NCBI RefSeq assembly: GCF_900184965.1
Contig: NZ_FXYA01000214.1
Coordinates: 62,001 to 126,000, forward strand
Direction of reading: 5' to 3'
DNA length: 64,000 nt
From: Akkermansia muciniphila
GTDB taxonomy: Bacteria > Verrucomicrobiota > Verrucomicrobiia > Verrucomicrobiales > Akkermansiaceae
A program made the position numbers and the translations under genes. Below are positions 61,236 through 64,000 of this stretch, in pieces. A model generated the notes under the pieces. It worked only from the letters and a program-made list of their open reading frames with translations, was not told the DNA's origin and did not search any database. Position 1 is the first letter of the stretch; the number at the start of each line of letters is the position of its first letter.

Positions 61236-61264
61236 TTGACAAGGCAGAGGCAGAGGAGTAATAA
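61236..61264 (+). promoter_or_regulatory. Near-consensus promoter of the trp operon
   Basis: TTGACA at 61236-61241 and TAATAA at 61259-61264 are separated by exactly 17 bases. The transcription start would be near 61271, two bases before the leader-peptide ATG, so the leader peptide mRNA would be nearly leaderless. Confidence 0.75.
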
Positions 61265-61272
61265 ACGCGCAG

Positions 61273-61380
61273 ATGCGTTTCAGCACTGTACAGCCCTTTT
61301 TTAGCAAGAACCGTTATTATGGCAACGGCTATTGGTGGCGCGTACCCATGTCCGGACGGGGGAATCCCGAGGTGCAGTAA
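61273..61380 (+). CDS. trpL: trp operon leader peptide with tandem Trp codons
   Basis: This 35-residue open frame begins ATG CGT TTC at 61273 and ends TAA at 61380. It contains the run RYYGNGYWWRV, with two adjacent TGG codons at 61333-61338 preceded by Tyr codons. It lies between a near-consensus promoter and a terminator hairpin just ahead of trpE, the arrangement of a ribosome-mediated attenuator: stalling at Trp codons would favour the antiterminator. The frame has no other recognisable function. Confidence 0.75.
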   Translation: MRFSTVQPFFSKNRYYGNGYWWRVPMSGRGNPEVQ

Positions 61381-61448
61381 TAGCATTCAGCTATGACCAT
61401 TTTTCAAGAACTGCTTTGATTCCTCCGAGAGTCAAAGCAGTTTTTTTA
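61369..61448 (+). promoter_or_regulatory. trp attenuator (terminator with possible antiterminator)
   Basis: AACTGCTTTGA at 61409-61419 pairs perfectly with TCAAAGCAGTT at 61432-61442 and is followed by T-rich sequence, an 11-bp intrinsic terminator ending 24 bases before trpE. GAGG and GCAG in 61369-61377 could alternatively pair with CCTC and CTGC inside the terminator (61411-61425), which would prevent it forming. The alternative pairing is my inference from inspection. Confidence 0.75.
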
Positions 61449-61471
61449 TTTTCAACTTACATCCATCATCC

Positions 61472-62878
61472 ATGCAAACACCATCCATGATTACTCTCCA
61501 ACAGCGTAGCCGCCGCCTGAGTGCCGATCTGGAGACCCCTATCAGCCTGTTTCTGAGCCTGACTCAGAACAAAATTCCCGGACTTCTGCTGGAAAGCGCG
61601 GAAGTGGACGGCAGATGGGGGCGCTACAGCATCATCGCCTGCGATTATCTGATGACCGTTTCCTGCGTAGACGCCAGGCTTTCCCTTTCCATCGAAGACT
61701 ACCGCCTGGCATCCCTGAAAGAGCTGGAAGGCATGCCTTACCTGGATGGGCTGCGCGTTCTGATGCAGCGTCTGGAGCTGGTAGGGGACGATATGAGGCA
61801 GGCTCCCATCACGAGGGCTCTGTACGGCTATTTCGGGTATGAAACCGCCGCCCTGTTCCAGCCCAGGCTGGCGCAGGCCATTCCTGCCTCTTCCGCAGAG
61901 TCCTGCCTGGTGCTGGCCGGCACCGTGATTGTTTTTGACCATTTGTACAATCGCCTTACCCAGCTCAGCCTGGGCGAACACCGTGATTTGTCCCATGCCC
62001 CGCTCCATGGGGCGGAGGAACCTTCCATAGGGGAGGTTTCCCGCACGCCGGACCAGGCGGCTTACATGAAAGGGGTGGAGCATATCAAGGAGCTGCTGCA
62101 TGACGGAGAAGCCATCCAGGTGGTGCTTTCCTCCCAGGCTTCCGCGGAGTTCCACGGAGACGCTTTCATGCTGTACCGCCGCATGCGCAGCATTAATCCG
62201 TCCCCATACATGTTTTTCATGCGCCTGCCGGAGGTGACGTTGTTCGGTTCTTCTCCGGAGCTGATGGTGCGCTGTACGGACGGCAAACTTCAGCTTTCCC
62301 CCATTGCCGGAACGCGCAGGCGCGGCAGGGATGATGAGGAAGACGCCGCCCTGGCCGCCGATCTTCTGAAAGATCCGAAGGAATGTTCGGAACATGTCAT
62401 GCTGGTGGATCTGGGCCGCAACGACCTGGGCCGTGTCGCCAAGCCCGGTTCCGTGAAGCTGGAACGCCTGATGGAGATTGAACGTTTTTCCCATGTGATG
62501 CATATGACTTCCCGCGTGACCGCCCAGGTGAACGACGGGTTGGGCGTCTTGGACATTCTCGGCGCTGCTTTCCCTGCCGGGACGGTTAGTGGAGCCCCCA
62601 AGGTGCGCGCCATGGAAATCCTGGCGGAGGAAGAGCCTTTGCCCCGCGGTCCGTATGCCGGATGCATCGGGTGGCTGGGGTTGGACAAAAACGGCGTTCA
62701 CATGGATTCCGGCATTACCATCCGCAGCATGTGGGTGAAGGATGGGCGCATCCACTGGCAGACGGGAGCCGGCATCGTATATGATTCCGATCCGGCCGCC
62801 GAATGGCAGGAGTGCATGAACAAGGGCAAAATTATTGACGTTATTTTGAAAGGAGAAGACCATGTTTCTGTTCATTGA
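61472..62878 (+). CDS. trpE: Anthranilate synthase component I
   Basis: TrpE makes anthranilate from chorismate with ammonia from TrpG. The 468-residue protein has the feedback-inhibition segment LLLESAEVDGRWGRYS near the N-terminus (LLES binds tryptophan in characterised enzymes) and the chorismate-binding core: PYMFFMRL, GSSPELMVR, PIAGTRRRG, ELMLVDLGRNDLGRVA-like LVDLGRNDLGRVA, and FPAGTVSGAPKVRAMEI. It is preceded by the attenuator and overlaps the trpGD start by 17 bases. Confidence 0.95.
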   Translation: MQTPSMITLQQRSRRLSADLETPISLFLSLTQNKIPGLLLESAEVDGRWGRYSIIACDYLMTVSCVDARLSLSIEDYRLASLKELEGMPYLDGLRVLMQRLELVGDDMRQAPITRALYGYFGYETAALFQPRLAQAIPASSAESCLVLAGTVIVFDHLYNRLTQLSLGEHRDLSHAPLHGAEEPSIGEVSRTPDQAAYMKGVEHIKELLHDGEAIQVVLSSQASAEFHGDAFMLYRRMRSINPSPYMFFMRLPEVTLFGSSPELMVRCTDGKLQLSPIAGTRRRGRDDEEDAALAADLLKDPKECSEHVMLVDLGRNDLGRVAKPGSVKLERLMEIERFSHVMHMTSRVTAQVNDGLGVLDILGAAFPAGTVSGAPKVRAMEILAEEEPLPRGPYAGCIGWLGLDKNGVHMDSGITIRSMWVKDGRIHWQTGAGIVYDSDPAAEWQECMNKGKIIDVILKGEDHVSVH

Positions 62879-64000
62879 TAATTACGATTCTTTTTCGTGG
62901 AATCTGGTGCAGGCGTTTTACGCCCTGGGACGCAAGCCCGTGGTGCATGCGAATGACGATCCGCGTATCCTGGAACTGGCGACCAGCCCGGAGCTGGAAG
63001 CCGTGTGCATTTCCCCAGGCCCCAGCCATCCGCGCAACGCCGGGCTGTGCCTGGAGTTCCTGAAACGCCTCCCTGCTTCCGTTCCCGTGCTGGGCGTGTG
63101 CCTGGGGCACCAGCTCCTGGGCTACTTCGCCGGAGCGGAGGTTTCCCGCGCCCCGTATGTCATGCACGGCAAGAGCTCCGACATCATCCATGACGGCGCG
63201 GGGTTGTTTGCCGGACTTCCTAATCCCATGACCGTGGGCCGCTACCATTCCCTGGTGGTCCAGTCCAAGGAGGACGAGCCGAACCCCCGTTTTACCGTTA
63301 CTTCCCGCGGGCCGGAAGGGGAAGTCATGGCTCTGCGCTACAATGACCGGCCGTGGGTGGGCATTCAGTTTCATCCGGAATCCATCCTGACGCCGGACGG
63401 GCTTCAGCTTCTGGGCAACTTTCCGGATAACGTCGTGCCCTCGGGGCAGAAGGAAAAGCGCATCAGCCGCATTTTGGACGCCCTGGCCGCCGGACAGGAT
63501 CTGACGGCGGATATGGCCGCCGCAGGCTTTGCGGACATCATGGATGGCCGCATGACTCCGGCCCAGGCGGGCTGCTTTTTAATGGGGCTCCGCATGAAAG
63601 GGGAAACCCCGCTGGAAATGGCCCACGCCGTGGGCATTGCCCTGGGGCGCGCCAACCGGGTGGAAGGATTGGAGGGCGACTGCATTGACGTGGTAGGCAC
63701 GGGAGGGGACGGCCGCAACTCTTTCAATTGCTCCACGGCTACGGCTTTGACCCTGGCCGGAATGGGATACAGGGTGGTGAAGCACGGCAACCGCGCCGTG
63801 TCCTCCTCCTGCGGTTCTGCGGATGCTCTGGAAGGCCTGGGATTCCCGCTGGACGTAGCTCCGGAGGATGTCCGGCGCCTGTTGGACGAGCGGAACTTCG
63901 CTTTCCTGTTCGCGCCTAATTTTCATCCTGCCTTCCGTAATGTAGGCCCCATCCGCCGGGAGCTGGGCATCCGCACCCTGTTCAATCTGCTGGGGCCCCT
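62862..64000 (+). CDS. Anthranilate synthase glutaminase fused to anthranilate phosphoribosyltransferase (TrpGD, partial)
   Basis: The frame opens at the ATG at 62862, after AGGAGA at 62851, and is still open at the window end (379 codons). Residues 1-190 are a class I glutaminase: FIDNYDSFSWNLV, oxyanion/nucleophile GVCLGHQLLG with C80, and FHPESI with H171 and E173. From about residue 200 the sequence is anthranilate phosphoribosyltransferase (TrpD): GTGGDG near 280 and KHGNRAVSS. The linker (PSGQKEKRISR) is short and in frame, so this is a true fusion. TrpG passes ammonia to TrpE; TrpD adds phosphoribose to anthranilate. Confidence 0.93.
   Translation, partial: MFLFIDNYDSFSWNLVQAFYALGRKPVVHANDDPRILELATSPELEAVCISPGPSHPRNAGLCLEFLKRLPASVPVLGVCLGHQLLGYFAGAEVSRAPYVMHGKSSDIIHDGAGLFAGLPNPMTVGRYHSLVVQSKEDEPNPRFTVTSRGPEGEVMALRYNDRPWVGIQFHPESILTPDGLQLLGNFPDNVVPSGQKEKRISRILDALAAGQDLTADMAAAGFADIMDGRMTPAQAGCFLMGLRMKGETPLEMAHAVGIALGRANRVEGLEGDCIDVVGTGGDGRNSFNCSTATALTLAGMGYRVVKHGNRAVSSSCGSADALEGLGFPLDVAPEDVRRLLDERNFAFLFAPNFHPAFRNVGPIRRELGIRTLFNLLGP

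What the first reader, a model, noticed from the sequence alone, without database searches (positions are those of the whole stretch)
61236..61471. Classical ribosome-mediated trp attenuator outside its usual phyla
Seen together: a TTGACA-17-TAATAA promoter, a 35-codon leader with tandem TGG codons, and an 11-bp terminator stem with T-run directly before trpE. Leader-peptide attenuation of trp is best known in Proteobacteria and Actinobacteria. In a Verrucomicrobium it would be a notable case of shared or convergent regulation. The predicted transcription start is only about two bases before the leader ATG, so the leader may be translated without a leader sequence.
Basis: partly seen in the sequence, partly recalled or inferred. 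Interest (0 to 1): 0.7.

Follow-up and report, generated by a model that had tools for sequence, protein, structure and literature searches.

The report
Imported tryptophan operon attenuator in Akkermansia
A gut bacterium of the Verrucomicrobiota appears to control its tryptophan genes with a small self-measuring RNA switch, and the switch and the genes came together from a Desulfovibrio-like bacterium of another phylum rather than evolving on the spot.

Summary
A 35-codon leader ORF with tandem TGG (61273-61380) lies between a TTGACA promoter and a 17-pair terminator with a T run (61406-61446), just before trpE. Of 30 Akkermansia trpE loci read, 29 have a Trp-rich leader plus terminator. This pairing coevolves (cognate better than non-cognate in 11 of 11 representatives; matched by none of 20,000 permutations).

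Other Akkermansiaceae genera have a different trpE (about 40% identity), unfused trpG and trpD, and no leader (0 of 40). TrpE, fused TrpGD and TrpA are Desulfovibrionaceae-type (52-69% identity), TrpE nests inside Desulfovibrionales, and 53 of 57 Desulfovibrionaceae loci carry the same kind of attenuator with the same antiterminator motif.

In Akkermansia the -10 box lies a median of 8 nt before the leader ATG (30.5 nt in Desulfovibrionaceae), so the leader is probably translated from a leaderless RNA. The tryptophan response itself is untested. Separate Trp leaders occur in 14 of 69 other Verrucomicrobiota loci.

The parts
61236..61264 (+). sigma70-type promoter TTGACA-17-TAATAA
   Evidence: sequence; invariant in the A. 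muciniphila complex and replaced by stronger boxes at the same distance in other species; weak -10, not listed by the strict scan
61271..61273 (+). predicted transcription start, 0-2 nt before the leader ATG (leaderless or nearly so)
   Evidence: inferred from the 8 nt between -10 and ATG; -10 to ATG median 8 nt in Akkermansia against 30.5 in Desulfovibrionaceae; 10% of A. muciniphila start sites are leaderless (PMC4782308)
61273..61380 (+). leader ORF, 35 codons
   Evidence: Trp-rich leader kept in 29 of 30 congeneric trpE loci
61333..61338 (+). tandem Trp control codons TGGTGG
   Evidence: WW, WxW or WWW, mostly followed by an Arg codon, in Akkermansia and Desulfovibrionaceae
61342..61375 (+). 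strand 1:2 (protector) helix GUACC 61342-61346 with GGUGC 61371-61375, enclosing 61357-61369
   Evidence: minimum-energy fold; the equivalent CGCA/UGCG helix is paired in 97% of cells in 25 Desulfovibrionaceae leaders
61357..61378 (+). antiterminator 5' strand CGGGGGAAUC...AGG.GCAGU (strand 2)
   Evidence: folds with 61410-61427 when the 3' terminator arm is not yet made, -22.3 kcal/mol; cognate pairing test
61406..61446 (+). intrinsic terminator, 17-pair stem and T run; its 5' arm and loop are the antiterminator 3' strand (strand 3)
61472..62878 (+). trpE, anthranilate synthase component I, Desulfovibrionaceae type
   Evidence: TIGR00564 best match, below its cut-off; tree
62862..63998 (+). 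trpGD fused gene (runs past the window end), followed by trpC, trpF, trpB, trpA
   Evidence: NF011201 best match; operon continues in L200; 66-69% identity to Desulfovibrionaceae TrpGD

Best explanation
This is a ribosome-mediated transcription attenuator of the trpE-GD-C-F-B-A operon, acquired together with the operon from a Desulfovibrionaceae donor by an ancestor of Akkermansia and since adapted to leaderless translation. Proposed working: the RNA starts 0-2 nt before the leader ATG and a ribosome begins on the free 5' end. If charged tRNA-Trp is plentiful, the ribosome runs to the stop codon at 61378, covers most of the strand 61357-61378, and the terminator at 61406-61446 forms and stops RNA polymerase before trpE. 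If charged tRNA-Trp is scarce, the ribosome stalls on the two TGG at 61333-61338 and masks the RNA only to about 61350. The strand 61357-61378 is then free to pair with 61410-61427 as soon as that is made, the terminator cannot form, and the operon is transcribed. The 1:2 helix (61342-61346/61371-61375) may favour termination when nothing is translated. Shown here: the anatomy, its conservation, coevolution of the antiterminator, the foreign origin. Inferred: the response to tryptophan, ribosome stalling, the exact transcription start.
For: Leader with WW/WxW plus terminator in 29 of 30 Akkermansia trpE loci at a fixed place; 0 of 102 reverse-complement controls of trpE upstream regions. Antiterminator: the 5' strand and terminator arm of one locus pair better than non-cognate ones, 11 of 11 divergent representatives, mean -20.9 against -15.4 kcal/mol, none of 20,000 permutations; in Desulfovibrionaceae the antiterminator register is paired in 82.8% of cells against 57-66% in slid registers. 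Folding: nascent RNA with a stalled ribosome gives the antiterminator (-22.3); RNA left free by a ribosome at the stop gives only the terminator (-22.0). Origin: Akkermansia TrpE nests inside Desulfovibrionales through successive well supported nodes; TrpGD is 66-69% and TrpA 58-60% identical to Desulfovibrionaceae against 36-49% and 30-38% in other Verrucomicrobiota; same order trpE-GD-C. Attenuator homology: a covariance model from 25 Desulfovibrionaceae leaders alone ranks window 61333-61444 first in the whole genome (38.2 bits, next 32.3); purine run plus GTGC(G/A) in 13 of 16 non-redundant Akkermansia and 41 of 53 Desulfovibrionaceae segments against 0.8 and 4.0 in shuffles. Leaderless start: and PMC4782308.
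Against: No expression data. The covariance-model score is partly terminator, ordinary terminators reach 27-32 bits, and a sequence-only model of the leader part finds the Akkermansia sites only weakly (best 7.9 bits, E about 1). A smaller tree did not reject Desulfovibrionaceae as a clade (AU p 0.126), so the direction rests on the deeper-rooted tree and on distribution. Terminator and antiterminator are nearly equal in energy, so the outcome depends on timing, which was not modelled; without any ribosome the truncated RNA also prefers the antiterminator, so default termination by the 1:2 helix is not shown. One Akkermansia (L021) does without the leader.
Confidence: 0.88

Rival explanations
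1. The attenuator arose independently in Akkermansia (convergence), or descends vertically from a Verrucomicrobiota ancestor.
For: 14 of 69 trpE loci from other Verrucomicrobiota families have Trp leaders with their own native TrpE, so leaders can arise or persist in the phylum; sequence-only similarity of the leader part to Desulfovibrionaceae is weak.
Against: 0 of 40 loci of 15 other Akkermansiaceae genera have it; the operon downstream is Desulfovibrionaceae-type in at least three genes; same geometry and antiterminator motif as in Desulfovibrionaceae.
Confidence: 0.05
2. The hairpin is only a terminator that insulates trpE from upstream transcription, and the leader ORF is not translated.
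For: Terminators are common between genes; the -10 box is weak.
Against: Trp codons and their distance to the terminator (about 50-83 nt) are kept over two phyla; a coevolving alternative pairing has no use in a plain terminator; a promoter sits between the upstream gene and the terminator.
Confidence: 0.04
3. The leader RNA or peptide also or mainly acts in trans, like rnTrpL/peTrpL of Sinorhizobium meliloti (PMC7298713).
For: A leaderless trpL RNA starting at its ATG is the S. meliloti arrangement; terminated leaders are natural small RNAs.
Against: Outside the Trp codons and the antiterminator-coding part the peptide varies within the A. muciniphila complex (codon positions 1/2/3 differ 2.5/10.9/12.5%) and is unrelated between Akkermansia clades.
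Confidence: 0.05
4. The leader is read from a conventional 5' UTR that starts further upstream, so it is not leaderless; the attenuator otherwise works as proposed.
For: The -10 box is weak and no transcription start has been mapped at this site.
Against: -10 to ATG spacing is 7-10 nt in 25 of 28 Akkermansia loci although the sequence between differs; 10% of A. muciniphila start sites are leaderless (PMC4782308).
Confidence: 0.15

Closest known systems
trp attenuator (trpL) of Escherichia coli and other Proteobacteria, Rfam RF00513 Trp_leader
   Same: Short leader ORF with tandem Trp codons followed by Arg, 1:2, 2:3 and 3:4 pairings, T-run terminator just before trpE
   Different: Scores only 13.9 bits against a gathering score of 41 (best relative L012 27.6); no sequence homology shown; leaderless start; longer leader; strand 2 is itself coding sequence (RGNPEVQ)
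trp attenuators of Desulfovibrionaceae (read here; no description found in the searched library)
   Same: Homologous operon, WWWR leader, purine-rich GGGGGA...GTGCGG antiterminator strand, similar distance from Trp codons to terminator
   Different: Most have a 5' UTR of about 20-40 nt before the ATG, often with a purine-rich stretch; terminator arm GCCGTCTCCCC instead of CTGCTTTGATTCC
Leaderless trpL of Streptomyces lividans (PMC8079986) and Sinorhizobium meliloti (PMC7298713)
   Same: Leader RNA starts at the leader ATG; Trp codons and terminator before trpE
   Different: Other lineages; no operon or leader homology tested or known; the S. meliloti leader also acts in trans, for which there is no sign here
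Lateral transfer of whole trp operons (Xie et al. 2004, cited in PMC1173090; full text not held)
   Same: A complete trp operon stands in place of the native dispersed genes of a distant lineage
   Different: Here the cis-acting attenuator came along and its translation start was changed

Membership tests
Ribosome-mediated trp operon attenuator (leader-peptide type) | Short leader ORF with tandem control codons for the operon's product upstream of the operon | tested here: met
   TGGTGG at 61333-61338; WW/WxW/WWW in 29 of 30 Akkermansia loci
Ribosome-mediated trp operon attenuator (leader-peptide type) | Intrinsic terminator between leader and first gene | tested here: met
   61406-61446, 17 pairs; present in all 29
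Ribosome-mediated trp operon attenuator (leader-peptide type) | Mutually exclusive antiterminator overlapping the terminator 5' arm, placed so that a ribosome on the Trp codons leaves it free and one at the stop covers it | tested here: met
Ribosome-mediated trp operon attenuator (leader-peptide type) | Leader translated; read-through rises when charged tRNA-Trp is scarce | not testable with these tools
   no expression data; conserved frame and codons only
Rfam RF00513 Trp_leader | Bit score at or above the gathering score of 41 | tested here: not met
   13.9 bits at window 61327-61450; L012 27.6 bits
Desulfovibrionaceae trp operon and attenuator lineage | TrpE nested in Desulfovibrionales, fused TrpGD, same operon order | tested here: met
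Desulfovibrionaceae trp operon and attenuator lineage | Leader and antiterminator recognisable by a model built from Desulfovibrionaceae alone | tested here: met
   38.2 bits, rank 1 of 2.86 Mb; margin over ordinary terminators is modest and a sequence-only search is weak
Leaderless mRNA | Transcription start within a few nt of the start codon | tested here: inconclusive
   promoter spacing supports it; no 5' end mapped

The most novel reading that the evidence does not exclude
A cis-acting trp attenuator crossed phyla together with its operon and was then rebuilt in the recipient from a 5'-UTR-led leader to a leaderless one, so that in Akkermansia the whole switch is timed by initiation on a bare 5' AUG; transfer and change happened once, before the genus radiated.
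Probability: 0.65. Interest if true: 0.6.

Novelty: new member of a known kind. Interest (0 to 1): 0.5.

Why it matters
It explains how a Verrucomicrobium comes to control tryptophan synthesis like a Proteobacterium: switch and operon travelled together, as a cis-acting RNA can, needing no partner protein. It offers a natural experiment in which one attenuator works with two kinds of translation start, and it concerns the operon with which a prominent human gut symbiont makes tryptophan. It also shows that Trp leaders occur elsewhere in the Verrucomicrobiota by other routes.

Tried and rejected
Rfam search for a known family: no match at gathering score in the region. Sequence-only HMM of the Desulfovibrionaceae leader part: too weak to prove homology. 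First guess of antiterminator columns in alignment A2 was in the wrong register and gave 53% paired; the register read off one sequence gave 82.8%. The second R1 hit in the window (36480-36567) is the terminator behind fabD, and the next two genome hits are plain gene-end terminators: rejected as attenuators. NCBIfam sorting of TrpE into a proteobacterial class: not informative, best match is the general TIGR00564 below its cut-off. Gammaproteobacterial origin, suggested by the WWRTS of one leader (L011) and the trpGD fusion: rejected, where the nearest relatives are Desulfovibrionaceae. Loci from the genome search were first read in the wrong orientation for minus-strand matches, corrected. 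Literature: no paper found in the library describing this attenuator in Akkermansia or Desulfovibrio; most subscription papers are not held.

Full report
Observation. The leader RNA folds better than all of 200 shuffles (z -3.6; the part behind the Trp codons -4.1). A scan of both strands of the window for short W-rich frames followed by a terminator-like hairpin gives three hits, of which only this one has a clean strong hairpin with a T run. The strict promoter scan does not list the promoter because its -10 box matches only 3 of 6 positions.

Conservation. Of 59 genomes of the genus, 28 have a trpE of this kind; with two more from the family search I read 30 upstream regions. 29 carry a short frame with WW, WxW or WWW and a terminator. 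The exception, L021, has a tRNA-Ala gene and another hairpin in that place. The Trp codons lie about 50-83 nt before the terminator stem in Akkermansia and about 58-77 nt in most Desulfovibrionaceae. Most other leader codons vary: the peptide as such is not conserved.

The missing element. Behind the Trp codons lies CGGGGGAAUCCCGAGGUGCAGU (61357-61378). It is complementary to the terminator's 5' arm and loop, ACUGCUUUGAUUCCUCCG (61410-61427). Folding the RNA as it would stand when polymerase has just passed the terminator loop, with a ribosome on the Trp codons masking up to about 61349, gives exactly this pairing at -22.3 kcal/mol; with the RNA masked to 61392 by a ribosome at the stop, only the terminator forms, at -22.0. 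Across 82 attenuators of both groups the 5' strand of each locus pairs better with its own terminator arm than with those of others: mean difference -5.4 kcal/mol; with one representative per terminator type, 11 of 11 favour their own, and no permutation in 20,000 reaches the observed mean. In 25 Desulfovibrionaceae leaders the antiterminator register is paired in 82.8% of cells, against 57-66% when slid by 1-3 columns, and the 1:2 helix CGCA/UGCG and the terminator are paired in 97% and 94%. This is the strand 1-2-3-4 logic of the E. coli trp attenuator (established knowledge).

Origin. In 40 trpE loci of 15 other Akkermansiaceae genera (one cut short upstream) there is no such leader, and TrpE is only 36-41% identical. 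The closest relatives of Akkermansia TrpE outside the genus, in a scan of 84,980 species genomes, are Desulfovibrionaceae (Desulfovibrio, Bilophila, Mailhella, Nitratidesulfovibrio and others), 52-63% identical over the full length; contigs labelled only Deltaproteobacteria fall among them. In an even draw of 198 Desulfobacterota genomes this TrpE is rare, but in the order of Desulfovibrio sp. A2 88 of 101 genomes have it. In a tree rooted on other Verrucomicrobiota, Akkermansia is one clade (100/99) and lies inside that order and inside Desulfovibrionaceae, as sister to the Bilophila-Desulfovibrio-Mailhella group, through nodes with 97/91, 98/94, 92/92, 97/98 and 100/99 support. A smaller tree without the deeper outgroups showed the same but did not reject a Desulfovibrionaceae clade (AU p 0.126). 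TrpGD is one fused protein 66-69% identical to the Desulfovibrionaceae proteins, whereas other Verrucomicrobiota have separate TrpG and TrpD at 36-49%; TrpA is 58-60% against 30-38%. In the window's genome the operon is trpE-GD-C-F-B-A. So at least trpE, trpGD and trpA, and most simply the whole operon, came from Desulfovibrionaceae.

The attenuator came with it. 53 of 57 Desulfovibrionaceae trpE loci have a WWWR-type leader and terminator in the same geometry. A covariance model made from 25 of them, with no Akkermansia sequence, puts its best match in the whole 2.86-Mb genome at 61333-61444 (38.2 bits); ordinary terminators reach 32 bits, so the margin is modest. A purine run followed by GTGC(G/A) marks the antiterminator strand in 13 of 16 non-redundant Akkermansia and 41 of 53 Desulfovibrionaceae segments, against 0.8 and 4.0 in shuffles. 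A sequence-only model is too weak alone. Position, operon and motif together make common descent much the simplest reading.

Leaderless start. The best promoter in front of each leader ends a median of 8 nt before the leader ATG in Akkermansia (25 of 28 within 7-10 nt), and 30.5 nt in Desulfovibrionaceae. With the usual 6-8 nt from -10 to +1 the Akkermansia RNA would start at or within 2 nt of the ATG. Cappable-seq of mouse gut samples found 10% of A. muciniphila start sites at start codons (PMC4782308). Leaderless trp leaders are known in Streptomyces lividans (PMC8079986) and Sinorhizobium meliloti (PMC7298713), so this is not unprecedented; the change of mode after transfer is the notable part.

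Rest of the phylum. Of 69 trpE loci of other Verrucomicrobiota families read here, 14 have a Trp-rich leader followed by a terminator, with native-type TrpE; reverse-complement controls gave 0 of 102. The premise that such control is foreign to the phylum is therefore too strong, but these cases are separate from the one in the window.

What is shown and what is inferred. Shown: anatomy, conservation, coevolving antiterminator, foreign operon, shared attenuator. Inferred from the established mechanism of E. coli trpL: ribosome stalling by uncharged tRNA-Trp and read-through on tryptophan shortage. Not testable here: the tryptophan response and the 5' end.

Verdict. A genuine trp attenuator, a new member of a known kind, horizontally acquired with its operon. 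Interest is moderate: the mechanism is textbook; the cross-phylum move with a change to leaderless initiation is the part a specialist would want to follow.

Noticed in passing
L302-L308, L311-L313, L315-L319, L272, L289, L293 (upstream of trpE): In other Desulfovibrionales the trp leader is a conserved small protein of about 50-60 aa (consensus MLTEDxxLFxTLFExNPxSxEAVRxFRSxLNLAAxGDLDLLxxKAxWWWR, mean column identity 61%) with WWW near its end; codon positions 1 and 2 differ less than 3 (46/45/62%). No Pfam or NCBIfam match. Unusual for a leader peptide; it may act in trans or as a nascent chain.
   Followed up: partly
L208, L213, L214, L215, L216, L217, L226, L227, L230, L239, L240, L247, L198, L199: Trp-rich leader plus terminator before native-type trpE in several other Verrucomicrobiota families, apparently independent of the Akkermansia case.
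   Followed up: partly
L215 and L217 (about -350 to -60 relative to trpE): Two successive Trp leaders each with its own terminator (MKKILNSKNIWWWLR, then MNNQLTNKYFGWWWRSGQGP in L215): tandem trp attenuators.
   Followed up: no
L021 1346-1418 and behind: One Akkermansia species lacks the trp leader; a tRNA-Ala(GGC) gene and a hairpin stand directly before its trpE.
   Followed up: no
genus search: About half of the Akkermansia species genomes (31 of 59) show no trpE of this kind, including many over 90% complete; operon loss or tryptophan auxotrophy seems common in the genus.
   Followed up: no
L202: In a horse-gut Akkermansia (L016/L202) trpG and trpD are separate genes and trpBA does not directly follow trpF.
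   Followed up: no
window 61312-61329: A small hairpin CCGUU...AACGG lies just before the Trp codons; similar hairpins of different sequence are seen by eye in L011, L012 and L033. It could be a polymerase pause signal.
   Followed up: no
L200 7228-11502: Behind the trp operon lies a large open frame of over 1400 codons that looks like a secreted autotransporter-type protein (by eye).
   Followed up: no
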